Assembly: GCA_964036665.1 (NCBI GenBank)
Contig: OZ038531.1
Coordinates: 23,890,591 to 23,954,590 of the forward strand
DNA from: Gordius sp. MW1
Taxonomy: Eukaryota; Nematomorpha; Gordioida; Gordea; Gordiidae
DNA length: 64,000 nucleotides
Direction of reading: 5' to 3'
A program made the translations under genes and the position numbers. The notes under the pieces were generated by a model, which was given only the letters and a program-made list of their open reading frames with translations, searched no databases and was not told the DNA's origin. Shown piece by piece: positions 8,764 through 59,700 of this stretch (its first letter is position 1; each line of letters begins with the position of its first letter).

Positions 8764-8769
8764 TTTATT
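8764..8769 (-). promoter_or_regulatory. Candidate poly(A) signal AATAAA (minus strand)
   Basis: TTTATT on the plus strand is AATAAA on the minus strand, about 95 bases after the stop codon of the exon at 8864-9210. Position and spacing fit the 3' end of that gene. In AT-rich DNA such hexamers also arise by chance. Confidence 0.5.
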
Positions 8770-8863
8770 GAATGGTACATTTGCAAAGCTATTATTTTAA
8801 ATTAATACGATCTATAATTGGTATTAATAAACATAATAATTTGATCAAGAGATAGTGTTATTG

Positions 8864-9210
8864 TTACACATAGTTTTCTTCATTATAGCTTTCGACGTAA
8901 TAATCATTATCCTTTGGGTCATCATTTATAAAATCATCTAAATACTCTTCTTCATTGCCCAACATAAATTGATATTCATAGTTCATATCATATTCAAAGT
9001 TATAATCAAAATCATAATATATCATATAATAATAATTCAAATATATATCCCTTAATGTTGTGTATCTTAAAGCACCAACATTATCTATGTATTCGATCAA
9101 GTTCAATTCACAAAATTGTTGTACAATATCCACTAAGAATTCATGGGGTGGTATATATATATTCTTTAAGTATTTTGAATGTTTCCATGGAACCAAGTTA
9201 TTAAGTGACT
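8864..9210 (-). CDS. Terminal coding exon: acidic, Tyr/Asp/Glu-rich C-terminus
   Basis: Starts after the acceptor ...AAATATAG at phase 1 and runs 114 codons to a TAA at 8864-8866. The first half is mixed (NLVPWKHSKYLKN, then EFLVDIVQQFCELNLIEYI). The second half is strikingly rich in Tyr, Asp, Glu and Asn (YYDFDYNFEYDMNYEY, EEEYLDDFINDDPKDNDYY). There is no membrane segment. It fits the upstream exon at 17865-18084, which ends with one leftover base. A poly(A) signal follows. The open frame could also begin at the Met at 9196, but the sequence stays open up to the acceptor, so I prefer the exon reading. I do not recognise the family. Confidence 0.6.
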
Positions 9211-10259
9211 CTATATTTATAATTTAGAAAGACTCAGTTAGAATAGTAAATTTAAATTGCTTTAAAATTAATCTTTAAGGAATATTAATATAACAACTAA
9301 TAACTTTTCCTGGTTATAAATAATAATCTTCAGGAAACGTCATGGCAAATATTAGTAATTTTATTTAATAATTTCCTTTCTTGGTTAATATCAACTTTTT
9401 ATGGTATAACTGCATAAGTTGCAAAATAAAGTGTAAAAGAATAATTAATTATTTAAGAGTATTAACGCAATATCTAGTTATAAATTCAGTGATAGTAGGA
9501 AGCTAATTAAAAAGTTAGTAAAAAATCTTTTAAATTGCATTTGTTAACACTTATATGATATCACCATCTTATAATGCTTGAAATATCTAAAGTAAAGTCT
9601 TGGATAATTTAATCAATTAAAACAGATAATCTCTCCTGACATAATAAGCTATCAAACCCAAGACCCATATGACTGTGGGTGAGACGACCCAAAATTTAAT
9701 ATCATTTGAGCGTACCATCTTATAAAAGATGTGGTTTTAAAAATGTTCTTAAGATCTACGCTATGACGATGGAGAAAGGCGCATATCATTAGCTATAACC
9801 GTGTTGACACAAGCTTGCAATTTTTTATTGACGTTTGCTGCACGCATTAAACTGCGATATATGCGATGCAAAATTTATGTTGTCATTGTAGTTTGGAATT
9901 GATGTGAGCATCTATGGTTTAAGTATTTGGTTCCTTGGGTTAGTACTCTTTAAAAAAAGGACTGGTACGGGCTGGCTTACAAAATAAAAATCTCAACGGC
10001 CTGAGCTTGGGCAGGCGAAACAAGTTTTAAATAAGGCCCGACTGAGCCTAAATTGTTTAATTGGTCCTGGAATATATTTTGATTTTAAATCGACAACAAG
10101 TGGGCTTTTAGAAAATTTATTAAAATTTCTAAGTATAAAATCTTAATAATTAGGACAATTTTAGATGACTATATAAAATTTACTTGCATTAATCCCTATA
10201 TGTAAACAAATTGTTGTTTATGATTATTTAATCAAGAAACTTATTTAAGGAACATTTAT
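9211..10259. other. Intergenic/intronic, with a GC-rich transposon-end fragment
   Basis: Mostly AT-rich without features. Between about 9955 and 10050 there is a run of GGGC/GGCC words (GTACGGGCTGGC, GGCCTGAGCTTGGGC) like the ends of the hAT-type elements elsewhere in the window. No termini or target duplication could be defined. Confidence 0.45.
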
Positions 10260-10289
10260 ACCTGTATGGTACTGTTCAGGGTTGTTTGT

Positions 10290-10488
10290 GTAATATTTCG
10301 ATTAATGTATTATTATATATTTCGTTATTCCTCATTCATGAGGTGATATAAATTTTGTATTTCCTAATTCGCATTGTTTATCGCTCTATCTCTCCTTCTT
10401 AATAAAGTAATGTTTGTGATGGCTTCCCTTAAATAATCGTTTTTGAATTCATTCTTTTTTCACATTTATTTCTCCAACAATTTGGCGT
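10290..10488 (+). repeat. Probable 5' LTR end and primer-binding site of the CsRn1-like element
   Basis: An AATAAA at about 10400 is followed by sequence ending CTCCAACAATT, then TGGCGTCATTGGAGTAGG from about 10481-10490. The latter resembles the TGGCGCAGTCGGTAGG primer site used by several insect gypsy elements. The LTR start is not defined because no second copy is visible. Confidence 0.45.
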
Positions 10489-10599
10489 CATTGGAGTAGG
10501 ATTTGAACCTACATGGAATCATATAAATTGGGAGATTCAATTAAGTTCTTTATTCTGCGTTTGAAGCTCACGTCATAAGCCAAGCAATTCTAGCGACTG

Positions 10600-11062
10600 G
10601 GGCCCAAAAGATTAAACTGCTGAGTTGTCTATCAACTGAACCCCTTCGGGTGGTGGTAGAGGATGCCATTCCGGACAACCTTAGAGAATGGGCATTCGAG
10701 GAAATTAACGAACAGGTTGAAGACACTATTTAAGAAAATATTGCGCGTGGCTCAACGATTTCCATTGGGAAATATCAGACTAATGGAAGGGGAGACAATA
10801 ATGCAATTCGTACGTAGACTGAAATTAGCATCGAGACTGCAATTTCACAAGCGGGGAGTTACCCAACAAGCTGATGGACCAATTCATTTTGGGATTGCAG
10901 AATCCGACGGTTCAAGCTAGATTGATGGCTGAGTGTGAACTGAAATGGGGCAGGGTCATCGAGTTAGCTCTGGGAATGCAAACGATCGAAGAAGGGATAA
11001 GAACGAGGCACGGGCCAGTAGGAGAAGCATTCGCGGTGGATATGTCAAGAGCGGGCCATTGA
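10600..11062 (+). pseudogene. gag of the CsRn1-like gypsy
   Basis: Two overlapping frames together look like a gypsy Gag capsid: GETIMQFVRRLKLASRLQF followed, after a frameshift near 10870, by DQFILGLQNPTVQARLMAEC, the classic '(D/E)QF-x-x-GL' motif. No zinc knuckle is recognisable downstream. Confidence 0.72.
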
Positions 11063-11429
11063 CTAGGTTGGAGGGAGCCCCTACCAACCGAGCAGAACCC
11101 AGCCCACCGTCTACGTAACAGGGAAATAAGGCTAACTGTGATTAAATCTAAATAGATTGATGATCTTAAAGAGTTAGTGAAAAGCTTAATGTTTACCCTA
11201 GATAAATTAAAAAAATACATGCAAAAAATAGGATCACGATCCTTCTCCAGACACCGGTCTTATTCTTGACCCATACGATTTTCAAATACAACCGATCCTA
11301 AACTATGATGTATCACAACAAACATCAAGAAAAAGCTACTAAATGCCCTGAGCTTTGTACGTTCCTACGCAGAGAATAAAACTAACAGGCCGGTCAGTCA
11401 AAGCGACAACCATAACTGGCCTCGTAAAA

Positions 11430-11700
11430 CCTAGTCACTAGTTCTATATTTATGACAAATCATCAACTTTTAATTTCTTAATTGATACTGGTGCAGAAAT
11501 TAGTGTGATACTTACAACAAAGCAAGAACGTCTAAAATTATCCAATTTACAACTTTATACAGCAAATGCCAGTGCCATAAAAACATATTGGCAAGAATTG
11601 CTGACTTTAGATCTAGGGCTCAAAAGACGATACCAATGGGTTACAATGGCTAAAACTTCCAATATTAGGTGCAGATTTTTTAAATTACTTTAACTTAATA
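11430..11700 (+). pseudogene. Retroviral-type aspartic protease of the CsRn1-like gypsy
   Basis: LIDTGAEISVI near 11475-11510 is an intact active-site motif. A downstream segment ending LGADFLNYF (in the reading around 11660-11690) is the normal protease C-terminal motif. Frames change between the two. Confidence 0.65.
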
Positions 11701-11759
11701 GAAAATATTCAAAGGAAACATCTAATAGAATAACAAACCACATATGTCAAACAAACTAC

Positions 11760-13113
11760 ATTTAAAGAAGCAAATTCACATTAGCTTTTGTACATCCTCC
11801 TGAATTGTTCGTTATTAGAACCCCGCAGTTTTCAAACACACAATCAATACACCAACAACAAAACACAATACCCATCACCAGATTATATTTCAAACCCAGA
11901 CGTTTGAATGCTGAAAAAATAAAGATTGCTAAAGATAAATTCATGCACATGATGGAGGCACCATCAGAATATGAAATAGCAACTGGGTCCACTAAACATG
12001 GCACCCAAAAAGAACAATAAAGTGTGGAGACAATTTGGAGATTATCGGGCTCTCAATATCAAAACAGTTCGATTGCTACCCTCTGTTTTATATACACGTA
12101 TTTTCACTTTCTTGGCAGGTAAAAATATATACTAAATTGGATTTAACCCGTGCTAATCAATCAAAATTCAAGGGCACTAGAAGATATCCAAAAAACCGCA
12201 ATCACAACCCCATTCGGTTTTTTTGAATTCTCACTCATGCCTTTTGGTTTAAGAAATACAGCAAAAACGTTTCAGAGATTTATCGATCATGCTATCAAAG
12301 GATTGGACCATACATTTGCATATTTAGATGACATATTAATCGCCAGTTCTTCACTTGCAGAACACAAAGTGCACGTCAAACGAGTAAACAACGACTTATT
12401 ATTAATGATGGGATTAAGTTAATTTGCAAAAATGTAAATGGCGAGTAAAGGAAATAAAATTCTTAGGACACACCGTAATGTCCAAAGGGTTTAAACATAT
12501 ACCCGATAAAATAGACACCATCGACAAATTTCCAACCCCAACTTCAATGACACAATTGAGAAGATTTAGAGGCATGATAAGTTTTCACCGACGTTTTATC
12601 CCAAATGTGCAGATCTTCTCAAACCATTAACCGACCACCTCGATGATACCAAAAGACCAATCGTAACATAAGAAGCAAAAGACGCGTTCATTCAGGCTAA
12701 ACATGCCCTTAAACAAATAACTAGTCTATCTTATTTAACGAAAAGAACAAGCTGCCACTTTACAGATGCTTCAAATTATGCTGAAGGAGGAGTTCTACAA
12801 CAACAAACATTAAATGGTCAAACTTACTACTTGCCTTCTTTTTAAAGAAATTATCACAAACTCGAACTCGCTACAGCACTTTTAGCCGAGAACTGTTGGC
12901 CGTTTATCTCATGATAAAACATACAGCCACGTTCTTGAATAACGCAATTTCACCGTATATACAGACCACAAACCCCTCTTATGCACTTAAGTCAAATATG
13001 GATAAAAACTCACCTCTAGAAATCCGCAGTTGGACTACATTTTACAATATACATTGAAAATTCAATACATCATGGGTAGTACAAACATCGTGGATGCCCT
13101 GTCTCGTACAGAC
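11760..13113 (+). pseudogene. RT-RNase H of the CsRn1-like gypsy
   Basis: RT blocks are TPFGFFEFSLMPFGLRN (12210-12260) and TFAYLDDILIASSS (12310-12360), with an intact YLDD. Then come FLGHTV and LRRFRGMISFHRRFIPN (12440-12610), the connection domain. RNase H follows with FTDASNYAEGGVL near 12760 and the end motif NIVDALSRTD at 13080-13113. There are at least four frame changes. The reading frame stops exactly where the hAT element has inserted and resumes after it. Confidence 0.82.
13106..13113. repeat. Target-site duplication of the 13-15 kb hAT element, left copy
   Basis: GTACAGAC here and GTATAGAC at 15328-15335, seven of eight bases identical. Removing the insertion rejoins the gypsy reading frame across the duplicated Thr-Asp codons. 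Confidence 0.75.
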
Positions 13114-15327: not shown

Positions 15328-15335
15328 GTATAGAC

Positions 15336-17864: not shown

Positions 17865-18084
17865 CTTGCGTCGTCTCTATAATTATTTGATTAGGTTCAA
17901 ATGACATGGCTATGGGAGAATCAATTTGAAGTTGATCAATTAAAAAATTTGTCAAATTATGGGAGACATCATCAAAAACATCATAAAGATATATATAACC
18001 TTCCAAAATTCCTTCATAGGGGCTTTTGTATAGTACAATTGATGTGAAGACCATTGAAATTTTTTGCTTAAAGATGGAATCAAT
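17865..18084 (-). CDS. Internal exon of the predicted host gene (C-terminal domain, part 2)
   Basis: Acceptor ...GATTTTATAG, then 73 open codons (IDSIFKQKISMVFTSIVLYK ... SFEPNQIIIETTQ) and a GTATTA donor that leaves one base, i.e. phase 0 in, phase 1 out. It joins in frame to 22346-22461 before it and 8864-9210 after it. Predicted strands and helices alternate: a helix, an amphipathic strand, P-Y-E-G-I-L-E-G turn, strand, helix DVSHNLTNFLIDQL, strand. This loosely recalls a SEA fold, but I would not assign it. No cysteine is present, unlike in the EB exons. Confidence 0.55.
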
Positions 18085-19648: not shown

Positions 19649-19671
19649 ATATAATAAAAAATAGTTTTATT

Positions 19672-20765: not shown

Positions 20766-22062
20766 AATTGAGGAGAAAGTTCGGTAGGGTGCAACACATG
20801 TTGCATTATTTTATCGATTTTTTGCTTCTGATGAATTATATAAAATTCATTAAATAGAATCATTAAGTAGAACTCTTTCCCCTCTACAAAACTGTGCCAA
20901 TCGTGATTTTAAGAAATTTAGTTTTTTATAACTTTCGCGACGTCAAAATGGAGTATTTAAACGATAAAAATCAACATTTTCGACACCTGCTATTCTTCGC
21001 TTTTCATCGTGGTCAAAACGCTGCTGAAACAGCCCGAGACATTTGTAAAGTATACGGAGAAGGTGTCATAGTTGAGTCTACAGCACAAAAATGGTTCGCA
21101 AAGTTCAAAAATGGCGATTTTGACATTGGTGACAAGCCCCGTAGCGGAAGACCCTCGGAATTCGACGAAGAGTGTCTCAGAGCACTTTTTAAGGAGGACG
21201 GTCGCCAAATAAGTCTTGAATTGGCGGAAATAATGAAGTTCGATCCGAAAACCATCCTAAATCATCTTCATTCGATGGGATTTGCCGAAAAATTTAGATC
21301 TTGGATCCCTCACGAGCTTAACGAAAGCCACAAAGAAAGTCGCCTTCAAATTGCTTCTCAACATCTCGCCCGTCATAGAGCTACCCGCGGTCATAAACAG
21401 CGCTTTTTATACCGAATCGCCACGGGAGATGAGAAATGGTGTTTGTACGTATATTTGAAGCAAAGAAAGGAGTGGGCGGCTCCTGGAGCGACTCCAAAGC
21501 CGAGGGTCAAGCCTGACCTCCATCCAAAAAAGACCATGATCTGCGTTTGGTGGGACTGGGAGGGCATTCTGCATTGGGAAATTCTGGAAAGGAATGCCAC
21601 GGTCAATAAGGAGCTCTATATATCCCAGCTACACCGCTTGAATGAGGCTATTCGACTCAAAATACCCCATCGACAAGGCCAGACCATACTCCTTCACGAC
21701 AACGCAAGGCCCCATGTTGCTCAAGTCGTAAAAGCCGCACTCCAAGAGCTCGAATGGGAGGTCCTTCAGCATCCACCATATTCTCCGGACCTTGCACCGA
21801 CGGATTACCATCTTTTCCGCTCTCTCTCGAACCATATGAGGGGCCTTGGACAATGTAGAGGGCCTTAAAAACTGGCTCAACAACTTCTTCGATACCAGAC
21901 CGGTCGATTTTTGGCGTAAAGGCATCGAAAAATTTGTCAAAAGGTGGGAGGAGGTCGTAAACAGCAACGGCGAATATATTATTGAATAAGTTATTGTTAT
22001 AACTATAAATAATCGTTAAATAAAAGACTTAGATAAAAACTGTACGAACTTCTTCCTCAACG
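20766..22062 (+). mobile_element. mariner (DD34D) transposon, nearly intact
   Basis: About 1297 bp, the usual mariner size. The inverted termini share TTGAGGA(G/A)(A/G)AAGTTCG (20768 onward and, reversed, 22060 downward). The right end is followed by TA, as expected for a TA target; at the left the two outermost bases and the TA have mutated. One gene fills the element. Confidence 0.88.
20948..21989 (+). pseudogene. mariner transposase with a single frameshift
   Basis: Probable start MEYLNDKNQHFRHLL at 20948; the upstream Met at 20894 adds residues not typical of the family. The N-terminal helix-turn-helix pair and the linker motif WVPHEL-equivalent (SWIPHEL) are present. The catalytic triad is complete: ATGDEKW, HDNARPH and YSPDLAPTDYHLF, with exactly 34 residues between the last two Asp, which defines DD34D mariner. 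One base change in length near 21842 shifts the frame after SLSNHMRG. The remaining ~46 codons (NWLNNFFDTRPVDFW ...) to the TAA at 21987 are intact in the next frame. Confidence 0.9.
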
Positions 22063-22345: not shown

Positions 22346-22461
22346 TTTATATTCAATCATCTTCAAAACATCATACCAATCGAGTTCCAATATGACATAT
22401 GTGGTATACTCGCTAAGGTCAATTTTAATAGTGAAACCGCAACTTGTATTGTGACCCATTA
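22346..22461 (-). CDS. Internal exon of the predicted host gene (C-terminal domain, part 1)
   Basis: A strong acceptor (TTTATTTATTTATCATTCAG) and a consensus donor (AAA|GTAAGT) bracket 38 open codons with two leading bases, so phase 1 in and phase 0 out. This matches the phase-1 output of the last EB exon (32786-32917) and the phase-0 input of 17865-18084. The peptide contains one Cys (HNTSCGFTIKIDL) and ends in an amphipathic LDWYDVLKMIEYK helix. The in-frame Met near the start is probably internal. Family not recognised. Confidence 0.6.
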
Positions 22462-29516: not shown

Positions 29517-29527
29517 AAATTTCTACA

Positions 29528-30920
29528 GAAGTTAAAGTTGCTATGGGTAAACTAAAGTCAGGAAACTTGAAAGCAGACAATATACCAATAGAGGGCTTTA
29601 AAGCGTTCGGCAATACTGGTGCACAATTCCTCGCCAACCTTTTCAACAATATCTTGAAAACGGATAAAATGCCTAACGAGTGGAGGGATAGCTACATGAT
29701 TCGGATATACAAGATGAAAGGGGACATTAAGGATTGCAACAATTACAGAGGGATAAAGCTTATGAGTCACACTTTTAAGGTGTGGGAAAAAGTAATCGAA
29801 AAACGGCTTCGGAGTTTGGTTCAAATTCGAGGTAACCAATTCGGATTCAAGCCGGAGAGGTCTACAGCAGACGCTCTAAAGAGTATTAAAAGATAAATGG
29901 AACGGTTAATGAAAGGAAAGGGGATTTGCACAGGTGTTTCATCGATCTAGAAAAAGCGTTCGATAAAGTTCCTCGTACTTTAGTATGGAAATGTCTTAAA
30001 GAAAACAGTGTGCCAAAATTATCCGTCAGAGCAATAAAAGATATGTTCAAGGGAAATAGAACGTATGTTAGAACAACGGTGGGGACTACAAAGGGCGTTG
30101 CCATAAACACTGGAGTCCCTCAACGTTCAGCTCTTAGTCCCTTTCTATTCATAATGATAATGGATATTATTACCAAGGATTTGGGCGAGGAAGCTCCTAG
30201 GGCCATGATCTTTGCAAACGATATAATGCTCTGTGCCAAAAGTGAACAAGAATTTGCTAATACTGTAAATAGATGGGTAAATGCAATGAAGAAGGTGGTC
30301 TCAGGGTAAATCGAAAGAAAACAGAATACATGAAGACAAAGTTTAAATCGTATAAAAACCAGCTAAGTGCGTTCCTTACTTTAGGCTATTGGCAACTTAC
30401 AAGCGTGGATTCCTTCAAATATTTAGGATAAACACTTAAATCGGAAGGTGGAATGGATAAAGAAATAAATTCAGATGGCTCAAGTGGAGGGACTTGACAG
30501 GCGTTCTGTGTGACAAAAACATCCCGAGAAGACTAAAAGGCGCACTGTATAAATCCATCATACAGCCAACAGTCCTGTATAGCTCGGAATCATAAGCTAT
30601 ACGTAAAAGAGAAGAGCAGCGTCTTGCGGCTATGGAGATGAGAATGCTAAGATGGGTGCTAGGAGTAAGCAAAAAGGAACACAGGCAAAATGAGAAAATA
30701 AGAAGAATTTTGGGTACTACATCTATTACGACAAAGCTCCTAACAAATGGACTAAGATGGTATGCCCACGTCGAAAGAAGGGACGATAGCTACGTCGGAA
30801 AGAAAATCGAGATGATTACTTTTTCAGGAAAACGAAGGAGAGAAAGAGCCAAGCTTACCTTGATTCATAAAAAACGGCACGATATGAAAGTCCACAAGAT
30901 AAAGAAAGATTAATTTAAAA
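29528..30920 (+). pseudogene. RTE-like LINE, RT and C-terminal part
   Basis: RT domain in two main frames. 29543-29896 has LKADNIPIEGFKA, NEWRDSYMIRIYKMKGD and NNYRGIKLMSHTFKVWEK. 29926-30309 has FIDLEKAFDKVPRTLVWKCL and VPQRSALSPFLFIM, then FANDIMLC where an active RT has (F/Y)ADD. The Asn is a missing catalytic Asp. The C-terminal region at 30632-30913 (MRMLRWVLGVSKK, LRWYAHVERRDDSYVGK) is the conserved RTE/Proto2-type tail. The endonuclease is absent: the copy is 5'-truncated against the preceding hAT composite. Confidence 0.85.
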
Positions 30921-32785: not shown

Positions 32786-32917
32786 TTGGTACGCAAAAAC
32801 TTTTCTTTTCTACTTGAAACATAGAAGCACATTGACAAAGGTAATTAACGCACGAACTATGTTTAGTAAAACTCTGACATTCGTCATCTTTAGAGCATGC
32901 ACTACCAGGTGTTTTTC
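32786..32917 (-). CDS. EB-like six-cysteine module exon, long type (5th in chain)
   Basis: Acceptor ...ATTTATAAAG, donor A|GTAATT, phase 1 in and out, 44 codons. The six cysteines are spaced C-x5-C-x8-C-x4-C-x-C-x11-C, starting GSACSKDDECQS and ending KSFCVP. This matches the EB module (Pfam EB) of arthropod and nematode extracellular proteins, likely folded by disulfides. Only a ~40-bp intron separates it from the preceding exon, showing intron size where no transposon has landed. The next exon in frame is at 22346-22461. Confidence 0.75.
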
Positions 32918-32957: not shown

Positions 32958-33074
32958 CAATCAAGCAAGTCTTTGCATCGAAGTAATATCCAATCTTGCA
33001 TCTACATCTTTTTTCTTCACAAAAATTAGATTTACATTGATAGCTTTTATTGCAATGAGCACCAAGTATTCTCT
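32958..33074 (-). CDS. EB-like six-cysteine module exon, short type (4th in chain)
   Basis: Acceptor ...ATAAAAATAG, donor G|GTATAA, phase 1 in and out, 39 codons. Cysteine spacing is C-x5-C-x4-C-x4-C-x-C-x10-C (HCNKSYQCKSNFCEEKRCRC, then KIGYYFDAKTC). Length, phase and spacing equal the short exon at 59358-59474, so the two are clear duplicates within one repeat-module gene family. Confidence 0.75.
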
Positions 33075-43937: not shown

Positions 43938-44284
43938 AAGCTTTTGATGATTTGTAGAAAATTGCTGAAGAAATGGAATTAGGAAGAAATGAAGTAGTAA
44001 ATCATGAAATAGATGTAGTATATCAAAAGTCTAAGCCAAAATTCAAACATTTCACCACAAAGAAATTTTTTCACCAAGGATCATCATCTACTAAAAGATG
44101 TGAGAGGTGTGGAAAGGTGCATGAAGTTAACAAGTGCCCAGCATTTTTTAAAGAATGCTATAAATGCCACAGAAGGGGACACTTTGCAAAATTTTGTCAA
44201 ACAGAATCTGTCAATATGATTAACACTTTACATGTAAAAATATTACACAAGTTTGGGGATGAAGAAACCATATATCAAGGTTAA
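43938..44284 (+). pseudogene. gag C-terminal part of gypsy copy 3 with two zinc knuckles
   Basis: The frame from 43973 ends in CERCGKVHEVNKCPAF and CYKCHRRGHFAKFC: the first is C-x2-C-x3-H-x4-C and the second the canonical C-x2-C-x4-H-x4-C. This is the RNA-binding nucleocapsid region. The capsid part is deleted upstream. Confidence 0.85.
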
Positions 44285-44648
44285 TATCAACCAAAAACTG
44301 TGCAAGATGCTTTTCGACATCGGAGCAGCAGTTTCAATTATAAACCAAGAAATTTATAATTTGATTCATAATCCAACTCTTGAAGAATGCCCTAAATTAA
44401 GATCTTTTGGAGATCATCCTATACCAATATTAGGAAAAACAAAAGTTAAAGTTCTACTGGGTCTCAAAGCTTTAACATTACCAGTTGTTGTAACTACGGC
44501 AAACGAAAGAGCAATATTTGGTCTTGATTGGATAAAAGCGTTTAACCTTGACCTTCCAGGAGAAGTTTTAATCAACAAAAAAAATGAATTAGATTCCCAA
44601 TTACGTACACAGTATCAAGCTATATTTAGAATAGCCCTGAAATTATAA
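44253..44648 (+). pseudogene. Aspartic protease of gypsy copy 3, active-site mutant
   Basis: The 131-codon frame overlaps the end of gag in another frame, as is normal. MLFDIGAAVSIINQEIYN shows the catalytic D-T/S-G changed to D-I-G. The distal ANERAIFGLDWIKAF block (the 'LG-DWL' motif) and LDLPGEV follow. This is the region deleted from gypsy copy 1. Confidence 0.82.
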
Positions 44649-45910
44649 AGTTAAAATCTTTTTAAAAGATGAATCCCAGCCAATAGCATTACAAACCCGA
44701 AGGGTACCTTTTCCCTTAAAACACAATGTAGAAATGGAATTAACGGTTGGAGGAGGAAGACATTATTGAACGTGTGGACGCATCTATAAGTGAAATTAAA
44801 TGGATCACACCATCAGTAAATGTTATTAAAGCTAATGGTTCTATTCGAATTTGTGGGGACTTCAGAGTTACTTTAAACCCTTACCTTAGTACCAAGATCA
44901 TATGCTGCCAACGTTTGATGATTTAATTACAAAAGTAGCAGGTGGTGATAAATATAACCGTGATAGATTTGCGTGACGCGCACTTACAAATGTTGGTAGA
45001 TGTAGAGAGAAGACATTTGCTACGCATGTTGGTCATTTTAGGTACAAACGTTTGTCATTTGGTTTAGCGACGGCACCAAATCTTTTTCAAAGATATATGG
45101 AAAATTTATTATATGGAATTCCGTAGACCGGAGTACTATTGGACGATACAATTGTAGAAACCAAAATGATAACTTAAAAAATTTAAATGAAGTACTAATG
45201 AGGATGCAAATGCCGGTTTGAAAGCGAAGAAGGAAAAAGTGAAATTTTTCCAAGATTCCGTAATTTATTTGGGACACAAAATTCAGCTGGTATTCACCTT
45301 ACTGACCAACGTGTATAAGTAAATTTAAAGTACCATCTAACAAGAAAGAACTACGATTATTTTTGGGATTGGTGGTTTTATTCCTAGGTTACATGAAAAA
45401 TGTGCACCCATACATGCACTGACCGGTTCTTCCGTGATGTGGTAATGGACGGCTACAGAACAAACAATTTTTTAACGATGTTAAGAAATTGCTGTCATCT
45501 GATACTTTAGTTCCTTATATGCCTATGTTGCCACTAAACCTTGCAATAGATGCATCGGAGACGGGGTTAGGCGCCGTTTTATCTCAGAAATTTCCGGACG
45601 GTTCGGAGAAACCGATCGCTTATGCATCCCGAACTTTAAGCAGTGCCGAAAAAAGATATTCTACCATAGATGCATCGGAGACGGGGTTAGGCACCGTTTT
45701 ATCTCATAAATTTCCGGGCGGTTCAGACCCGAACTTTAAGCAGTGCCGAAAAAAGATATTCTACTATTGATCGTAAAGCTCGTGCGATCATTTACGAGGT
45801 TGAGAAGTTTAATCAATATCTTCGGGGTAGACAATTTACTTTTACAACCGATCTCATACCCTTGGAGCGGTTATTCGGATGTAATCGGGATTTGCCAAAA
45901 ATGGTTAATA
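44649..45910 (+). pseudogene. RT-RNase H of gypsy copy 3, with an internal duplication
   Basis: RT blocks are present with many frameshifts: RICGDFRVTLNPYL near 44860, FGLATAPNLFQRYMEN near 45060, then LLDDTI where copy 1 has LLDDII, and LFLGLVVLFLG-like connection sequence. RNase H (45489-45770) is odd: about 120 bp starting ATAGATGCATCGGAGACGG at 45546 is repeated at 45666, the second copy with a 20-bp deletion. The DASETGLG motif therefore appears twice. Confidence 0.82.
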
Positions 45911-48880: not shown

Positions 48881-49009
48881 TTGGAACGCAAAATTCATCT
48901 ATTCTGAAGGTATTATTGTTGCATGTGCAGAGCTTTTTTCTAATGTGGCACACTGTATAGTTCCTTGATGTACAATCGCGATCTGATTCACACGTAGAGT
49001 TGAATATGT
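48881..49009 (-). CDS. EB-like six-cysteine module exon, long type (3rd in chain)
   Basis: Acceptor ...TTGATCAAATATAG, donor A|GTATTC, 43 codons, phase 1 in and out. Cysteines: C-x5-C-x7-C-x6-C-x-C-x10-C (STCESDRDCTSRNYTVCHIR..., LCTC, then DEFCVP). The ending F-C-V-P is shared with the exon at 32786-32917, and the spacing class is the long type. No other exon is visible within several kilobases on either side; transposons occupy both flanks. Confidence 0.72.
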
Positions 49010-50930: not shown

Positions 50931-51640
50931 ATCCCTTATCAAAATAACCCATTATAATTTTAAGCGACCATTATACAAAGGTTTATTAGCTGTAATTGCA
51001 CATAAATTTATTAGTGGTCAAGAAAGACCGATAGCTTTGCCTATCGTACTCTAAGCAGAACGGAATTATTCTGTAATTGACCGCGATGCCGCGGCTTTAA
51101 TGTTCGCCTTACAGAAATTTCACGAGTACATTTTTGGGAGGAAATTTACATTAGTCACAGACCATCGTCCTTTTGAAAGAATTTCTGGTTTAAATAGAGA
51201 TTTAAATAAAGTCACTAATAATCGATTAGTTAGATGGGCAGCAAAGCTCTTACACTATGATTTTGATATTAAATATTTACTTGGATCAACGAATAAATGT
51301 GCGGATGCTTTATCACGTTTAATTCCTATTTCGAATTATTCCGACCCAAAATCGGATCACAAAGATAAATTAATTAAATCAAACTTAATAGACGACTTAT
51401 CCATTAATCGTAAAACTTTGATAAATGAAACCTCAAAAGATGATTTACTAAAGGAAGTTACAAAATTATTTCAAAGTAATTGGCAAGGTGATGTCTCCAA
51501 TAAAAAGTTAAAAAATATTTCGATTTGAAAAATTATATATCGTGCGAATATAACATTCTATATTTCAATGATAGACTCATTATATTCTCTAGTTTGAAAT
51601 CAGAGATTTTAAAAATACTACATAATGGACACTGTAGAAG
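50931..51640 (+). pseudogene. RNase H and spacer of gypsy copy 4
   Basis: RNase H starts degraded near 50960. The frame from 51100 is clean for 142 codons with FTLVTDHRPFERISG, RWAAKLLHYDFDIKYLLGS and NKCADALSRL, then the charged spacer LIDDLSINRKTLINET that matches copies 1 and 3. After 51530 the sequence moves into the integrase zinc finger (LHNGHC). Confidence 0.83.
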
Positions 51641-52612
51641 ATTAAATTTCTACTTTATTATAACCCAAAAGGAAAGTGATTCAAGTGAATAAAATTTAGT
51701 TAAAACATCGTGTTTATATACCCAAGCGAGGTGAGTGGTGAAATAATAAGGTTAAGATATATAAATAGTGAGAGTTGTGAATGCTCGAATAATAAAGGTT
51801 AAGTTGTATGAATAGGTAACCAATGATCGAGTTTATATATTCAAATTAATGGTTACGTTAATACTTGAGAGAGAAAGGTTACGTTTTTGCATAGGTAACC
51901 ATAGAAATCCCCTTTTATTTGCAAGGAGTGCTAAAAATAAAAGTTAAAATACTTTGTTGGCCAATGTTTTAGTGTGCACTAGTGTTTGCTGGTGTGGTGA
52001 CCGAGGTGTGAGTGATGATTGGGAGTTCATATGTTATCCAATATAATAGCAGATTTGTCGGAGCAGACATATCTATTTTGGAAACGCATTCTTCCCTCAG
52101 TTCAATCGGTAAGTATTGGTTAGAATTTTGGTAGTAAGTGTTTTTGCTTTGTCGAACGCCGTCCTTGCTCGTGCAAGAGGTCATGTGATGTTGATTAATT
52201 AGATATATGTTTTGTAGTTGGGCAATGGCAGGACAGGGGAACATTTTTACTTTCGGTAGATGATGTTGTTGCTTGTGTAGAGGTGTAATATGGTAACATG
52301 GTTTTCTTCGTATTAACAATCAGATAAGTAGGTAGTTTGTATCTTTCACAGCAGCCACATGTTTCGAATTTAGCATTAAGGTCGAAATTGTTGTTGCAGC
52401 TTGATTGTATGCCGGATTGAAAAGATAATGCCCTATATCTGAATTGTTTTATTTTAACTAAGAAAAACCAAACGCCATTACTCAAGGGACTGTTATGGGG
52501 AAGAAAAAATTATGTCTTTCCCGAAAGTCGGGGTCAATGTGGACCTGGGTTATAAATTTTTAAGGGGGAGGGAGAAAAAAAATCGGCTCCCCCGAAAATG
52601 CGGGGTCACCAA
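51640..52612. mobile_element. Unidentified insertion in the gypsy copy 4 integrase
   Basis: The integrase finger breaks off after GAAGATTAA (about 51635-51646) and resumes just after a second GAAGATTAA at 52618-52626, a possible 9-bp duplication. About 25 codons of the finger between His and Cys ligands are also missing. The insert has no recognisable gene. Its right part has inverted-looking CCCCGAAAATGCGGGGTC and CCCGAAAGTCGGGGTC words. Identity unknown. Confidence 0.5.
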
Positions 52613-53286
52613 TTTGTGGAAGATTAATAATTGTCAAGAAGGTAGACCATCAGCGAAAGGAGTATTAGTGTCTTCCTGGAACATTCCCAATAAACATTGG
52701 GAAAGGATCCACATTGATTTGGCGGGGCCAATATCAAACAATATTGGTTGGTATGCAGTAATGCTCTTACAAAATGGCCGGGGGTATGTTATTAGGCAAA
52801 TCAGCAGTGCGATCATAATTAAAAATTTACAAGTTTTGTTTTCCAGATATGGGCTGCCACGTTACATAGTTAGCGATAATGGACCACAATTTACGTCGGA
52901 CCAATTTAAAACTTTCTGCAAAGCAAACGGCATTCGACATTTTCGTGGCGCACCTTATCACCCTAGAACCAATGGTTTGGCGGAGAGATACATTAAGGCA
53001 ATTAAAAGCAAATTTTTTGCGGGGAAAAGACAGGGGTTAGATGATCATAAAAATTTGTTGCAAGTTTTATTTAATATGCGTACGATTGTGAATACCACTA
53101 CTGGTATTAGTCCGAGAGAAGGCATGTTTAACCAAAGACTCCGTACAATTCTCGACCAACTAAAATGGAGGCACAATGATAGAATTGGTGATGCCCATGG
53201 AAACAAAAAGACAACATACCCACGTACAAAAAGTATCCGTACCATCTGTCAGATACACCGAGGGTTCCGCTTAAAGAAGGGTGAAG
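52613..53286 (+). pseudogene. Integrase core and tail of gypsy copy 4
   Basis: Within the frame 52512-53291, from NNCQEGRPSAK onward: WERIHIDLAGPISNN (first Asp), a short damaged segment, YIVSDNGPQFTSDQFKTFC (second Asp), YHPRTNGLAERYIKAIKS (third, Glu). All three catalytic acidic residues are kept, unlike in copy 1. The residues before the Cys pair come from the inserted sequence and are not integrase. The C-terminus is shortened. Confidence 0.85.
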
Positions 53287-53482
53287 TGTAGTGACCGTAT
53301 TAATTATTTAGTTATTTGAATATACGCTTCGTTATATGTAACATAATTACCTATTTTAAAAAAATATGGATTTATCGTCTACTTAAGTTTTTATCGTCTG
53401 CTTTTAATTATTATTCGCGGTATTGAAATAAAAGTCGTTAAATCTAAGTTGTTTGGTATTCTACCACTGCCACTTCACTACA
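53287..53482 (+). repeat. 3' LTR of gypsy copy 4
   Basis: 196 bp from TGTAGTGACC to CACTTCACTACA, with canonical TG...CA ends. The terminal inverted repeat is unusually long (TGTAGTGA/TTCACTACA). It is preceded by the purine tract AAAGAAGGGTGAAG and contains AATAAA at about 53429. Confidence 0.82.
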
Positions 53483-54054: not shown

Positions 54055-54753
54055 TCTATATATATAAAGTAAAGTGTATGTACGTATGTGTGTATGTATG
54101 TGGATAAGGGCTAAATTCTGAAACTACCGGCCCGATTCGCGCGAAAATTTAGCCGTAGATGCCCAGGGGCGGCCAGGGGTAAAATAGTTTTTTCAAATTC
54201 CTAAAATGCCTTTTCGTTTTAAAAATATCGGACATTTCGTTTTAAAAAAGGGCTAAATTCTGAAACTACCGGCTCGATTCGAGCGAAAATTTTGCCGTAA
54301 ATGCCCAGGGCGGCCAAGGGTAAAATAGCTTTTTCAGATTCCTAAAATACCTTTTCGTTTTAAAAATATCGGACATTTCCCGGCCAGTTTCATAATAGAA
54401 TCATATACAATAATGACGTCATACATACAAGGCTGAAGTTTACTCGAATTAAATATTTAAAAGTATAATAAAAATGTTACAGTATACGGTCAAATTATTT
54501 AAATTAAATAATAAAATTTAAATTATGATAATAGCATTAAATTAACAAACTACTTTGCTTTATGTGTTTATATTTTGTATTTAGCGTGTTAATTCTTCCT
54601 CATTAAGTTCGTGAATTATTTCCCATAGGACAATTATATTTTAATAGCTCATTATATGATCGAGGCATAACGATGAGCATGCACATAACTTATAGTATTG
54701 TATTTTCTAAAAATAATGTATATAGCAAAACAACGTTTGCCAGGTCAGCTAGT
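54055..54753 (+). mobile_element. Helitron-like (HINE-type) non-autonomous element, copy 2
   Basis: TCTATATATATAAAG start and CGTTTGCCAGGTCAGCTAGT end, as in copy 1. Two internal direct repeats begin GGGCTAAATTCTGAAACTAC (54107, 54250). Copy 1 has three. The sequence before the end differs from copy 1 (an AT-rich stretch, 54440-54720), as often in HINE families. Confidence 0.8.
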
Positions 54754-55783
54754 TTATCATAATTTTATTATTGAACATTTTCAATATACAACGTTTTTCT
54801 TTAATTTGCACCTATTGACTCTTATCCTCCACTTTAATGTGAGAGAAAAAGGTGATCAATCATAGCTTTTAAAAGAGAACGCCTTTTCTCTATTCCTCCT
54901 TTGCATGAAACTTACTCCTTCCCTTAGTTTGTTTTTTCGCCACTCTTGAACAATACAAAAAAATCAAAAGGCATAGCTAAAATTTAAAAATTATAAGTTG
55001 GAATTTTACTTAATTTTTTAAATAATTTGTTTAAAGTTTAAGATTAATCTAAACTTGATTATTTATTAAAATAACCTTTGACAATAGTTTTTTCTAACTT
55101 TTATAACAATTTTTTGATGTATACCTATTATTGTCAAAAATTTAATAATTTTAAAATATAACATTTTTTAGATTAAGAATTCTACTCAATAATTTTAAAA
55201 ATCCAGCCGAGAATTTCTTTGATGTTTTTTAATTATCAAAAATTTACGAAGAAAATTGACAAATTTAGAACAAAACTACCAAATATAAAAAAGTGCGGGA
55301 TCAAATTCATGAGCTATGATTGATCACCCTTTTGCTCTCCTACTAATGTGCATTAAAGAGTTAAGACGTGCAGAAGCATCAAACGTTATAATAAATGATT
55401 ATTTTAATTTTGACAAAAAGTTGCATTTAAAAGGCAGCAAAATATCAAAAAATATTTTTCGGGCGGGTTTAGGCTGGGCCCGTCCTTTGCAAAAAAATTA
55501 GCAAGTCCGGCCCCTATAATTTAATCCTACCAAGCCAGTGATCGGATTTTTTAATTTTTTCTACTGGTGGCCAATTTAAAAGGCCTGAAAATATCTTTAA
55601 CTTAAACAGTGGCCCTAGCATAGACTAATAAACTGCTCATCGTCTAGGCATAGAGCATTTTCACCATTTTTAATATTGCTCGGGTATTAACTGTTCCAAT
55701 ATAAGGAAATTTACAGAATATGTTTTTGATATATTAAAATTTTTATTTTGCTTTGTATTTTTTTTATTTTCAAATTTTAATTA
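54754..55783. other. No gene seen; GC-rich hAT-like end at 55.46 kb
   Basis: Mostly AT-rich. GGGCGGGTTTAGGCTGGGCC and GTCCGGCCCC near 55459-55515 resemble hAT subterminal motifs. Nothing else supported. Confidence 0.45.
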
Positions 55784-55933
55784 GATTTCCACTCAGAGAC
55801 AAATTGATCATCCAAGCTTGGCTGCATGAAGTTAAAAGACACATTCCAAATAAAAAATCTGCCCTCTGTAGTGCCCATTTCACCCCTGATCTATTTATTC
55901 CATTTGTTATTAAAACAGACAGCTTAAAGAAGG
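55784..55933 (+). CDS. THAP zinc-finger exon (partial)
   Basis: After the acceptor ...AAATTTTAATTAG the frame reads FPLRDKLIIQAWLHEVKRHI, then SALCSAHFTPDLF and SLKK before a GTACTA donor. This is the second half of a THAP domain: the conserved Trp, the C-x2-H zinc ligands (CSAH), the following Phe and the Leu-Lys-x end. The first half, with the C-x2-4-C pair, should be on an upstream exon that I could not find. THAP domains bind DNA in host regulators and in P-element transposases. Which one this is cannot be told, since an RTE copy follows closely. Confidence 0.6.
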
Positions 55934-56389
55934 TACTATACCTACCTTATTTAATTTTGCAGATCATATTTAAAAAGTAATAGCTATATATTAAACTAAA
56001 ACAAAGATGAAATTTCAGAAACCACGATCGACAAGAACTATTTACATTTCAGCAATAAGTCTCCTTGTAAATATTACAAATAATTTGCCTAAAAAAAGAA
56101 GGAAGCTACAAAATAAATTCTTAACCCCCCTTGAGGTAGTGGAGCCTCTAAATGACCCTTCTTCAAGTCGAAGGATGTCATGGAAAGGAGGAAAGGATAT
56201 TTTAAGAAACTTAGGAATATTGCAAATGACAAGGATTCCCTTCCCTATATTAAGCCAAACGTATGTTCGAACTCTTTCAGGGGAAGTTAGAACACAAAAG
56301 CATTGCTCAAATGTCTTAAAAAAGAGGTCACCACACCCCATGACGAACCTCCTAAGCAAGATATTGGTAGAAGAGCGAATACTAATTTA
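55934..56389 (+). pseudogene. Uncertain coding remnant between THAP exon and LINE
   Basis: A 127-codon frame (56007-56390) has basic stretches (NLPKKRRKLQNKFL). Another frame reads RNIANDKDSLPYIKPNVCSN, then PHDEPPKQDIGRRANTN, in the manner of the RTE linker between endonuclease and RT. The region from about 56130 probably belongs to the LINE. The first part is unassigned. Confidence 0.35.
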
Positions 56390-57590
56390 AGATGAAGTAC
56401 GAATCCTCAGGAACGTGGCAATTACATAGGTATCAGGCTAAATTGTCACTCCTTGAAGCTTATGGAAAATATCTTAGTAACAGCCGAAAAACGAGGTGAA
56501 AATATCGGCTAACCAATTCGGATTTGTGACCTGCAAATCTACAATCGACCCATATAAATATGGTGAAAAGTGAAGAGACCTTTATATACTTTTTATCGAC
56601 TTGGAAAAAGCTTATGACAGGTTCCCTCGCGATTAATATGGTGGTGCCAGAGAAAACAAAATATCCCTGATGAATATATACGGCTTATGAAAAATATTTA
56701 TGAAAATTTAAACTCTTGCGTTAGGACGTCAGTTGGAATCTCTACACCTTCTTGGATTAAAATTGGATTATAGCAAGTATCTACTTTAAGTCCCTTTTAG
56801 TTTAATATAATTATAGACACGATTACGAAAGACATTCAAAAGCCATCGCCATGGTGTATGCTATATGCCGATGATATGGTACTAGTCATAGAAAAAAGTA
56901 AGTTAAGTGTTCGAAGAAGCCAAATTGTGGTCAAAGCGCTTAGCTGGAACTGTTCAACGATCGAAAACTGTTATACATAAAATTGAACGTTACAGGTAGA
57001 GCATCTCTGGATGACCATCTAAACCAAAAGTGGATAGGTTTGCATACCTCGGCTCGGTGCTACATCAAGAGGGAGGTTGGGCAACAGAAGTTGATTCCCG
57101 GATGCAAAAAAGATGGCTTAAATGACGAAGTATATCCGGTGTAATGTGCGACAATAAAATGTCAATTTGGTTTATAAAAGCTTGCAAATCCATCGTAAGA
57201 CTGGTGTTACTCTATGAAAGTGAAACATGGCCATTAAACACCACGGAAGGAAAGTAATTCCAAGCCACAGAGATGATGATATGTTGAAGCTTGGTAATAC
57301 TAAGCTTGACCATATGGCGAATGACTTTCTAATGACAAAAATGGGTATTCAACCTATGGCGGACATGATTAACGAAAATTGGTTAAGGTGTGGGCATATA
57401 CTATGAAGGGACACGGACGACGTCAATCAAAAAGTACTGGACATGGAGGTACTAAGAAAGAGAAAAAGAGGACGACCCCGTGTCACGTGGAAAGGGCTAG
57501 TGAACAAAATTATGAAAGCAAAAAGATTAGTCAAGACATGGCACTCACCGGGCCCAAACTTATTAAAACAAACCCCACGACTGTGGGACC
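56390..57590 (+). pseudogene. RTE-like LINE, RT and C-terminal part (plus-strand copy)
   Basis: Short frames in order: GNYIGIRLNCHSLKLMENIL, ANQFGFVTCKSTID, YILFIDLEKAYDRFPRD, CYLYADDMVL-type catalytic region near 56855-56885 (YADD kept), then RMQKRWLK and the CDNKMSIWFIKACKSIVRL segment. Finally comes the basic tail MEVLRKRKRGRPRVTWKGLV (57443-57502). It aligns with the minus-strand copy at 35.9-39 kb and gives the uninterrupted version of the site hit by the OTU-bearing insertion. Frameshifts throughout. Confidence 0.8.
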
Positions 57591-57990
57591 TAGAGTTGTT
57601 AATTGCTCGCGTGAGCAATGCTAACTATGTGCTTTGCTCGAGCACGCACACTAAGCTGTTTAATATGCTAGTTAGCACAATGAGTGCTCGGTGTTCTGTG
57701 CAATAGTTTTAACAGTAGCATGTAAAAATGCTCGAGAGGTTAGTCCAACAGCGAAATCTGTTAAAGCATTGAGCAGAGAGCCCGAGCAGTAAACTCGAGC
57801 AGATAGAAGATTTAATTGCTATTTTTTATAATTTAGTAAATTACAATATTTGCTCATATTATATATCATAAATAAATTAAGAACTTTGCCCCCTTCCCAA
57901 TTTTTACCCTCTTTCTCACCAAGAGGAAAAGAGAGGGGGGTGATTTCCCCTTATTATTTACCCTCTTTCTCACCGAGGGGGGCTGATTTA
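57591..57990 (+). mobile_element. Left arm of a TAGAGTTGTTAAATTGC-family hAT element
   Basis: Starts TAGAGTTGTTAATTGC directly within LINE tail sequence and continues with GCTCGAGCACGCACACTAAG, AGCCCGAGCAGTAAACTCGA and ACTTTGCCCCC as in other copies. No right arm follows, so it is truncated. Confidence 0.68.
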
Positions 57991-59357
57991 TAATTTTCTT
58001 ATATAAAAGAGACTTTTTGAATTTCATATAGAGCAAAGTTTTTTTAGTTTATGCGATTTTATATAATTACTTTGCTCTATTAGCATGACCGCGAGATTTA
58101 TTTATAAAATAAATAGCTCCTGTTATATTCCTTAATAATTAAGTTTATAATTATAAATTTTCTCTATTAAAATTTCCTCTTTTTTTCCCTATATCCGGCA
58201 AAATATTTACAATTTGCCTATAACAATATATCAGTATCACCTTGAGGATGTACTAAGCCTAAAATTAGTAAAATTAAGCCCATTTGATTTTGTGTGATTG
58301 TAACGATTTAAAAATTTCTTAATTTATCACCTAAAACTTTCATAAATGTGGCTATTCTCATATAAATTGTACTTTCATCCAAAATAGTTCTTACTTTATC
58401 ATTGTTTACTATACCACAATTAAAAAGTAATTGGAGGAGCATTATGCATATAAATTAAAAGCAGACTATTTTTTCATGTGTTTCAATGAGCGCATGGGTT
58501 AGGGAATGCAGAGAGAGCAAAAGCATTCTAAAAACTATTAAAATTTTTAGATGGAGCGAAATAGGAACCAACCTTAAAAGAGATACCAAATATATTTTCA
58601 TCACAATTTTGGTAAAATATATTACCCAATCGAACTTTTGCTTTAAAATTTTAAAAATTGCGGATAAAGCACTCCAATTTTCAGGGAGCGATGTGTATAT
58701 ATAAATGATAAATTGAATCTAAATTTATTTCCTCACATTTGTATTATTACGTGCATATACCTAAATAACGTTTTTATTAAAACGCGTTTATAGTAAAAAT
58801 AATTTTGTAAATGAAATCGAAAGTTTGTAAAAACACAAATTATAATTTTTTCTTTTGATCGATTTCAGTATTAACCTATTATTCCTAGTCCCTTCTTATA
58901 AATAAATTTAGGTCTGATTAAATTAAATTATAAAAATGTTTTAAATTTAAATATTCTACAATACTATTCTTGAAAGCCTCGTGATTTTTTTCTTAAGTCT
59001 TGATGCTGTCTGCTAATTTTACCTTTGATTTTATCTTATTTTTTGCTAATAATATTAATAAATTATTTTAGGGTTAGTCAGAGTCAGTTTGTTTAAATAA
59101 GAAAATCTATCTATGTACATTAATATAGTTTACTTTTAAATTGAGATAATGAATAGTTGAATAGATTAATACAATCAGAAAAAATAATCAAAGACAAAAA
59201 TTTCAAAATATACAAATCTAAAACTTTTGAATGAGTTTTAACCAAATATGTTGCGTATGCCCTATTTTTAATTAAATATTTTTTTTTTTCTTTAAATGGT
59301 TCATTTGACACCGGAGACGTATATTTAAATTCTGTTATAGCTACAAAACATGCATAC
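57991..59357. other. No gene seen (intron-like)
   Basis: AT-rich sequence. Open frames at 58486-58704 (plus) and 59120-59368 (minus) show no domain; the minus one is read-through past the donor of the EB exon. Confidence 0.45.
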
Positions 59358-59474
59358 TTTTGAGACATCTTTTATTATCCTCTATATATCCGTAGGGACA
59401 AACGCATTTTTTATCCGAGCAGACGCCACTCTCGCAATAATCATTTCTCAGGCAACCTTCATGTAATTTTTTTT
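59358..59474 (-). CDS. EB-like six-cysteine module exon, short type (2nd in chain)
   Basis: Acceptor ...TGTTTATTTATAG, donor A|GTATGC, 39 codons, phase 1 in and out. Spacing C-x5-C-x4-C-x4-C-x-C-x10-C: GCLRNDYCESGVCSDKKCVC and then PYGYIEDNKRC. This is identical in length and spacing to 32958-33074. It lies 103 bases downstream of the first exon. No alternative reading frame gives cysteine order. Confidence 0.78.
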
Positions 59475-59577
59475 CTATAAATAAACATTTGTGATAATTT
59501 ATTAGAACAAATCTAATATAATTAAGTATAAAATTTATTAACAAACTCTATATATAATTCATCTAAATTCAAATAAC

Positions 59578-59700
59578 TTAATATGCAGTATTGATCTTCT
59601 TCGTACCGTATTTCTTTATTACATTGGCATACATTGTTTACACAGTCTGAAAGTGCTGTACAAGCATCATCAACATCACAACGTCCACCTACGTTAGACA
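59578..59700 (-). CDS. EB-like six-cysteine module exon, long type (1st seen in chain)
   Basis: A strong acceptor (TTTTTCTTATTTCAG), a weaker donor (A|GTTATT), 41 codons, phase 1 in and out. Spacing C-x5-C-x5-C-x4-C-x-C-x11-C: GRCDVDDACTALSDCVNNVC, then QC and EDQYC. Because it is internal by phase and has no signal peptide, at least one more exon must lie upstream, to the right of 59.7 kb. I did not find it within the window. Confidence 0.75.

What the first reader, a model, noticed from the sequence alone, without database searches (positions are those of the whole stretch)
8764..59700. A >50-kb host gene of EB-like cysteine modules hidden among transposons
Five minus-strand exons each encode one six-Cys module with identical phase-1 borders. 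Three more exons with matching phases lead to a stop and a poly(A) signal. Eight junctions with agreeing phases and no stop created at any joint are unlikely by chance. Only ~1.3 kb of 51 kb would be coding, and gene finders would probably miss it. The C-terminal part does not resemble known EB proteins, so the architecture may be undescribed.
Basis: partly seen in the sequence, partly recalled or inferred. Interest (0 to 1): 0.88.

Follow-up and report, generated by a model that had tools for sequence, protein, structure and literature searches.

The report
Chromosome-end family of giant cysteine-module genes
In a horsehair worm, the suspected giant gene is real and is one of about eight copies near chromosome ends, in which two of the cysteine-rich building blocks change unusually fast while the rest of the protein is held constant.

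Summary
The finding holds and understates the case. The eight minus-strand exons lie at the stated places with AG/GT borders and one open frame to a stop and AATAAA; the first five are EB modules (Pfam E=1e-23). The genome is a horsehair worm's (COX1 95% to a Gordius sp.). Six further complete copies and one partial copy keep exon order, phases and open frames. All lie towards contig ends (7 of 8 within 14-42 kb), 5' end toward the telomere. Three more cysteine-module exons lie upstream in all eight copies, beyond the window: at least 84.5 kb, 11 exons, about 560 aa. No signal-peptide exon was found. dN/dS is about 0.2 overall, but modules U3 and EB1 change faster than adjacent introns while every cysteine stays (for EB1 in one of two independent pairs). 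Copies are mosaics, implying exchange between chromosome ends. The C-terminal part has no Pfam match over cut-off; a SEA-like fold is unproven. Transcription and function are untested; a secreted recognition protein is my best guess. New variant of a known kind.

The parts
59578..59700 (-). Exon EB1: EB module with six Cys, phase 1-1; one of the two fast-evolving modules
   Evidence: Borders; Pfam EB; conserved in 8 of 8 copies; pooled dN/dS 1.24 among copies B-F
59358..59474 (-). Exon EB2: EB module, phase 1-1
   Evidence: present in 8 of 8 copies; dN/dS 0.61
48881..49009 (-). Exon EB3: EB module, phase 1-1, strongly conserved
   Evidence: dN/dS 0.11
32958..33074 (-). Exon EB4: EB module, phase 1-1, 40-bp intron to EB5
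   Evidence: dN/dS 0.11
32786..32917 (-). Exon EB5: EB module, phase 1-1, most conserved module
   Evidence: dN/dS 0.06
22346..22461 (-). Exon C6: first part of the C-terminal region, phase 1 to 0
   Evidence: conserved in 7 of 7 complete copies; dN/dS 0.23
17865..18084 (-). Exon C7: predicted alpha/beta order H-E-E-H-E-E at low confidence (pLDDT 57), phase 0 to 1
   Evidence: model; dN/dS 0.44
8864..9210 (-). Exon C8: last coding exon with stop; tyrosine-rich acidic tail with NYYYxxYYDFDY
   Evidence: 19 Tyr in 114 aa; single-sequence model pLDDT 39
8764..8769 (-). AATAAA poly(A)-type signal about 100 nt after the stop
   Evidence: similar position in copies B-F, not in G

Best explanation
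This is copy A of a chromosome-end gene family of a horsehair worm (Nematomorpha, Gordiida). SHOWN from sequence: at least 11 exons over at least 84.5 kb encode about 560 aa: eight six-Cys modules (U1-U3 beyond the window, EB1-EB5 inside it), a region without a Pfam match over cut-off (C6-C7) and a Tyr-rich acidic tail (C8). Seven complete copies and one partial copy lie towards different contig ends, all with the 5' end toward the telomere side. The protein is under purifying selection overall, modules U3 and EB1 change faster than adjacent introns with all cysteines kept, and the copies are mosaics of one another. INFERRED: the eleven exons form one transcript; copies spread and mix by exchange of chromosome ends (a terminal exchange keeps orientation relative to the telomere, which would explain the uniform direction); the product is an extracellular disulphide-rich protein whose constant EB3-EB5 and C-terminal part is a stalk or assembly region and whose U3-EB1 region binds a target that changes in antagonistic coevolution, most likely a factor of the arthropod host, with a mating or gamete partner as second choice. 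The confidence given is for gene, family and selection; the host-directed recognition role alone I put at about 0.3.
For: Model and EB match. Replication of all eight window exons in six more complete copies. Upstream exons in 8 of 8 copies. Eleven exons joined are open in 7 of 7 complete copies, 559-563 aa, 49-51 Cys. dN/dS of A against B-G 0.18-0.22. Per-exon dN/dS from 0.06 (EB5) to 1.35 (U3). Exon against flanking intron in the two independent pairs: E-F U3 20.0% against 2.3% (p=4.5e-10), EB1 16.3% against 1.9% (p=1.3e-5); C-D U3 12.8% against 5.0% (p=0.0038). 0 of 49 Cys columns vary among B-F. Mosaic ancestry. Telomere arrays beside copies. EB-module transcripts upregulated in one tissue (PX, which I take to be pharynx) of parasitic Anisakis: PMC5763927, passages.
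Against: No transcript evidence was available. No start codon or signal-peptide exon was found, so secretion is inferred from the cysteine modules alone. U1-U3 of copy A score below the EB cut-off (EB 17.6 bits, EGF 20.0 bits). In pair C-D, EB1 is not faster than its flanks (p=0.24), and N:S in U3+EB1 (76:16) is only slightly above the neutral site ratio of 4.2-4.5. Flanks were aligned locally, which favours similar parts. Gene conversion between copies can mimic fast change. Copy F lies 178 kb from its contig end, which carries no telomere repeat.
Confidence: 0.82

Rival explanations
1. Structural extracellular protein: a cuticle, eggshell or secreted-glue component, disulphide-linked through the cysteine modules and perhaps tyrosine-cross-linked through the tail; several copies serve dosage.
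For: C8 has 19 Tyr in 114 aa in copy A and 17 in 113 in G; EB3-EB5 and the tail are strongly constrained; related tails exist in internal clusters.
Against: Dosage does not predict U3 and EB1 changing faster than introns.
Confidence: 0.25
2. Reproductive recognition protein: a gamete or seminal protein whose U3-EB1 part coevolves with a mate's receptor.
For: Fast modules inside a constant scaffold are as expected for gamete recognition as for host interaction.
Against: Nothing found that points to the germ line; untested.
Confidence: 0.2
3. Subtelomeric relics: the copies were active once but are now silent or decaying.
For: Chromosome-end position, transposon-holding introns, no transcript evidence; U3 and EB1 N:S close to neutral; copy H is incomplete in the assembly.
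Against: Seven of 7 complete copies keep 11 open exons, splice dinucleotides and one terminal stop; EB3-EB5 dN/dS 0.06-0.11 among recent copies; 0 of 49 Cys columns vary.
Confidence: 0.05
4. The exons belong to two or three neighbouring genes: U1-U3, EB1-EB5 and C6-C8.
For: No transcript joins; modules with phase 1-1 borders fit any neighbour in phase; the first exon is unknown.
Against: Same order and orientation of C6-C8 behind EB5 in 7 of 7 complete copies and of U1-U3 before EB1 in 8 of 8; EB5 ends in an open exon with a donor in every complete copy; in the internal C1 cluster weak EB matches (7 of 9 members, E 0.03-0.3) also lie shortly before the C7-like and C8-like exons.
Confidence: 0.1

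Closest known systems
Multi-EB-module proteins (Pfam PF01683), for example the EB-module transcripts of parasitic Anisakis (PMC5763927, passages read)
   Same: Several adjacent six-Cys EB modules; the Anisakis transcripts carry three to five
   Different: Anisakis ones are described as often associated with Kunitz domains; here a C6-C8 region without a Pfam match follows, genes are 77-122 kb and sit at chromosome ends
Chromosome-end variable gene families of parasites such as var of Plasmodium or VSG of trypanosomes (recalled; not compared by sequence)
   Same: Several diverging copies beside telomeres, mosaic copies, fast change in an exposed part with a conserved scaffold
   Different: Unrelated protein; an animal; huge multi-exon genes; about eight copies only; no evidence here of switching or exclusive expression
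SEA domain (Pfam PF01390)
   Same: C6+C7 are about 112 aa; by eye a beta-alpha-beta-beta-alpha-beta order; SEA is the only family listed for copy C, in matching register
   Different: E=0.072 and 13.7 bits against a cut-off of 26.4; 1 of 6 copies tested; copy G instead lists an unrelated family at E=0.077; no SEA entry among the 50 PDB matches shown for the low-confidence C7 model

Membership tests
EB module (PF01683) | Match over Pfam's curated cut-off for EB1-EB5 | tested here: met
   Copy A EB1-EB5: 83.6 bits against 24.3, five stretches
EB module (PF01683) | Match over cut-off for U1-U3 | tested here: inconclusive
   Copy A U1-U3: 17.6 bits, below 24.3 (EGF 20.0 against 21.5). Copy C U1-EB2 together: 48.5 bits, four stretches, but this includes EB1-EB2
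EB module (PF01683) | Conserved cysteines in every module | tested here: met
   Six Cys columns in each of eight modules, none variable among copies B-F
SEA domain (PF01390) | Match over Pfam's curated cut-off | tested here: not met
   Best 13.7 bits against 26.4, in copy C only; none in A, B, D, E, G
SEA domain (PF01390) | SEA fold | tested here: inconclusive
   C7 alone: H-E-E-H-E-E at pLDDT 57; no PDB match at E<=0.001, best 0.016, none of the 50 shown named SEA
Chromosome-end variable gene family | Several diverging copies beside telomeres | tested here: met
   Eight copies; U1 13.6-41.9 kb from the contig end in seven, 178.5 kb in F; telomere repeats at the ends for A-E, G, H
Chromosome-end variable gene family | Exchange of segments between copies | tested here: met
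   Copy F is C/D-like upstream of U1 and U2 and E-like at U3; EB1 exon of E is D-like in an F-like surrounding
Chromosome-end variable gene family | Exclusive or switching expression | not testable with these tools
   No transcript data held
Gene carried by a mobile element | Exons lie inside an element or its reading frames | tested here: not met
   None of the eight window exons overlaps the nine ORFs with transposon domains found among 19 ORFs tested; element boundaries were not mapped

The most novel reading that the evidence does not exclude
An animal parasite has evolved a telomere-linked variable-protein system: about eight chromosome-end copies of one giant gene swap module exons by recombination between chromosome ends, with one or few copies expressed at a time under telomere position control, so that worms present different recognition surfaces to their arthropod hosts.
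Probability: 0.08. Interest if true: 0.92.

Novelty: new variant of a known kind. Interest (0 to 1): 0.66.

Why it matters
Horsehair worms change the behaviour of their arthropod hosts, and to my knowledge (recalled) few worm molecules involved are known. A chromosome-end family with two fast-changing modules in a rigid scaffold is a concrete candidate that can be followed by expression, localisation and population sequencing. It also shows a gene of about 2% coding sequence keeping one exon structure in seven copies while intron lengths differ widely, and it is the sort of gene that annotation can easily miss.

Tried and rejected
Chance alignment of splice sites: rejected by seven complete copies. 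Transposon gene: none of the eight window exons lies in an ORF with a transposon domain. Of the 21 stop-to-stop frames of at least 110 aa I scanned 19 (13 plus, 6 minus); nine matched transposon families (seven at E<=0.001, two at E<=0.01), all nine on the plus strand, opposite to the gene; the two not scanned were exon C8 and 55995-56390. Allelic duplicates in the assembly: rejected, because copies lie on different contigs or arms, have different intron lengths and dS from 0.035 to above 1. C11 as the missing part of copy H: rejected, no match of C7-C8 there. Signal-peptide exon: sought three ways, none convincing. Relatives in the protein database: none at E<=0.001 with copy A, none at E<=1 with an alignment of four of the seven complete copies; the database holds nematomorph mitochondrial proteins but its nuclear coverage of the phylum is unknown, so this says little. 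Solved structures: none for that alignment; for copy C C6+C7 five chains at E<=10, best gasdermin at E=0.057, taken as chance. The C7-like exon of the internal cluster gave no Pfam match. C8 model pLDDT 38.6, not used. SEA sequences for a profile comparison could not be fetched.

Papers (open-licence library only, so nothing here shows absence from print): 'EB module' with 'subtelomeric' 0 papers; 'Nematomorpha' with 'subtelomeric' 0; 'Nematomorpha' with 'telomer' 8 listed, none opened for that question. Searches were used as listings; passages were read in PMC11603191, PMC11408602 and PMC5763927; no paper was read whole.
Full report
Observation. The script read every claimed border on the minus strand: each acceptor ends in AG and each donor begins with GT. 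The first exon starts after TTTCAG at 59700. Joined, the eight exons give one open frame, SNVGG...ENYV-stop; the other two frames hold many stops. Five exons are six-Cys modules with phase-1 borders; Pfam gives EB at E=1e-23 with five stretches, and nothing over cut-off for the C-terminal part. AATAAA begins 97 nt after the first base of the stop codon. The coordinates of the finding are right.

Organism. The window is C5:23890591-23954590 of a 211.8-Mb, 12-contig assembly with eight chromosome-sized contigs. Of 14 ends of these contigs that I looked at, 10 end in TTAGGG repeats, and an eleventh, the right end of C5, has an 8-kb TTAGGG array 1.7 kb from its end. C12 is a 14.8-kb contig with mitochondrial genes; its COX1 is 95% identical to 'Gordius sp. 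VVA-2019', 87% to Gordionus alpestris, 80-81% to two other gordiids and at most 67% to the other 116 of the 120 listed. The animal is therefore a gordiid horsehair worm; the species is not established.

Family. A whole-genome search with exons C7-C8 found six further loci with both exons at 42-53% identity; a search with EB1-C6 found the other exons of the same six loci and EB1-EB2 of one more. I name the copies A (C5 right, the window), B (C2 right), C (C1 right), D (C6 left), E (C3 right), F (C8 right), G (C2 left) and H (contig C10, partial). A script that sought AG...GT exons of the right phase recovered all eight exons, open, in B-G, and EB1-EB2 in H. The later exons of H were not found in the assembly.

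Extension. Comparing A with H upstream of EB1 showed three further conserved exons. A genome search with them found all three in all eight copies, same order and orientation, with phase 1-1 borders. Joined, the 11 exons give 559-563 aa with 49-51 Cys and a single terminal stop in 7 of 7 complete copies. From U1 to the stop the copies span 77.5-122.5 kb (84.5 kb in A); U1 lies 13.6-41.9 kb from the contig end in seven copies and 178.5 kb in F, whose contig end lacks telomere repeats. In A a TTAGGG array starts about 8 kb beyond U1, and C10 with copy H also ends in TTAGGG. All eight copies have the 5' end toward the contig end. No convincing first exon with start codon and signal peptide was found.

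Module identity. EB1-EB5 are EB modules. For U1-U3 of copy A, EB scores 17.6 bits (cut-off 24.3) and EGF 20.0 bits (cut-off 21.5); U1-EB2 of copy C score 48.5 bits for EB with four stretches. I therefore call U1-U3 six-Cys modules, EB-like.

Divergence and selection. Copy A is 56-60% identical to the six other complete copies, G 69-70% to B-F, and B-F 86-92% to each other; dN/dS of A against B-G is 0.18-0.22. Among B-F, pooled over 10 pairs, dN/dS is 0.43 (U1), 0.66 (U2), 1.35 (U3), 1.24 (EB1), 0.61 (EB2), 0.11 (EB3), 0.11 (EB4), 0.06 (EB5), 0.23 (C6), 0.44 (C7) and 0.24 (C8). In 10 of 10 pairs the U3 exon is less identical than both of its flanks. Pairs share history, so I tested two independent pairs: E-F, U3 20.0% against 2.3% in flanks (p=4.5e-10) and EB1 16.3% against 1.9% (p=1.3e-5); C-D, U3 12.8% against 5.0% (p=0.0038) and EB1 13.0% against 10.0% (p=0.24). 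No other of the 22 tests reached 0.05; U2 in C-D came to 0.052. Minimal changes are 76 nonsynonymous to 16 synonymous in U3+EB1 and 13 to 25 in EB3-EB5 (Fisher p=1.8e-7); the 76:16 alone is only slightly above the neutral site ratio of 4.2-4.5. None of 49 Cys columns varies among B-F although U3 shows 50 minimal nonsynonymous changes in 44 codons, which speaks against simple loss of constraint. Caveats: flanks were aligned locally, which favours similar parts, and conversion between copies can mimic fast change.

Exchange between ends. Upstream of U1 and of U2, copy F is 95-97% identical to C and D but 74 and 84% to E; beside U3 it is 96-99% identical to E and 85-94% to C and D; the flanks between are mixed. 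The EB1 exon of E is 93% identical to D and 84% to F, although the following 350 bp (short intron, EB2 and beyond) are 94% identical to F and 81% to D, as an exon-sized conversion tract would give. C and D share long blocks upstream of and across U1-U2 at 92-96% identity. Exchange of terminal segments keeps orientation relative to the telomere and would explain the uniform direction; that step is inference.

C-terminal part and relatives. C8 carries NYYYxxYYDFDY. Related tails occur in a C1 cluster at 26.75-27.09 Mb (nine members, one with two stops inside), at one locus on C4, and in a C6 cluster at 3.03-3.14 Mb (about six loci, four without stops); 15 columns are invariant in an alignment of three chromosome-end and three internal sequences. 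In the C1 cluster an exon of C7-like layout lies before the tail exon in 9 of 9 members; its likeness to C7 was judged by eye, and the tblastn of C6-C8 against it gave nothing significant. Weak EB matches (E 0.03-0.3) lie near 7 of the 9. C6+C7 could be a SEA domain: SEA is the only Pfam family listed for copy C, in register, but at E=0.072 and in 1 of 6 copies tested, while copy G lists an unrelated family at E=0.077; the C7 model has the order H-E-E-H-E-E at pLDDT 57 and no PDB match at E<=0.001. I leave it open.

Introns. In copy A the five long introns inside the window are about 10.3, 15.8, 10.3, 4.3 and 8.7 kb (from the borders), and four of them hold ORFs with transposon domains. Positions give quite different lengths in other copies, for example 0.6-15.8 kb between EB3 and EB4.

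Function. What EB modules do is not settled (recalled). EB-module transcripts are reported upregulated in the PX tissue (which I take to be pharynx) of parasitic Anisakis (PMC5763927, passages). With the cysteine scaffold kept and two modules diversified, I think a secreted recognition protein most likely: host-directed about 0.3, structural 0.25, reproductive 0.2. None of this was tested.

Novelty. No homologue was found in two protein searches, and no paper in the open-licence library joins 'EB module' or 'Nematomorpha' with 'subtelomeric'. Multi-EB proteins and chromosome-end variable families are both known kinds; the combination, in an animal, with giant transposon-holding introns, is a new variant.

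Noticed in passing
G000:C5:6316312-6346863 (L001-L003, L005, L007 lie in it): A 30-kb stretch holds 54 of the 76 EB matches listed for the whole genome (150 of 197 candidates scored): a very large EB gene or cluster.
   Followed up: no
G000:C2:24402985-24404157 (L004, L008): Six EB matches in one 378-aa open frame and a seventh nearby with a stop inside: an EB protein apparently without introns.
   Followed up: no
contig ends L024-L026, L028, L029, L031, L036, L038-L040, and C10 end: Chromosome ends of this nematomorph carry TTAGGG, not the TTAGGC of nematodes or TTAGG of arthropods (the latter two recalled).
   Followed up: partly
window 3288-5011, 20867-21868, 29519-30309, 44238-45770, 51055-53291: All nine ORFs with transposon domains (retrotransposon parts and one Mos1-type transposase) lie on the plus strand, antisense to the gene; none of six minus-strand ORFs matched. 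Perhaps sense insertions are selected against.
   Followed up: partly
G000:C1:26753801-27091092, C6:3033101-3138100, C4:5588131-5588418: Internal clusters of genes with the same YYDFDY tail as C8: nine on C1, about six on C6, one on C4.
   Followed up: partly
L042 about 3707-3950 (C12, mitochondrial contig): A tandem repeat translating as repeated LPYYYLTIT lies between ND1 and COX1.
   Followed up: no
L037 (C8 right end), L032 (C9 start), L027 (C4 start): These contig ends consist of a GGACAACGGAC-type satellite instead of telomere repeats.
   Followed up: no
window 61995-62892: Seven copies of a 129-bp tandem repeat, 94% matches, just upstream of EB1, in the U3-EB1 intron.
   Followed up: no
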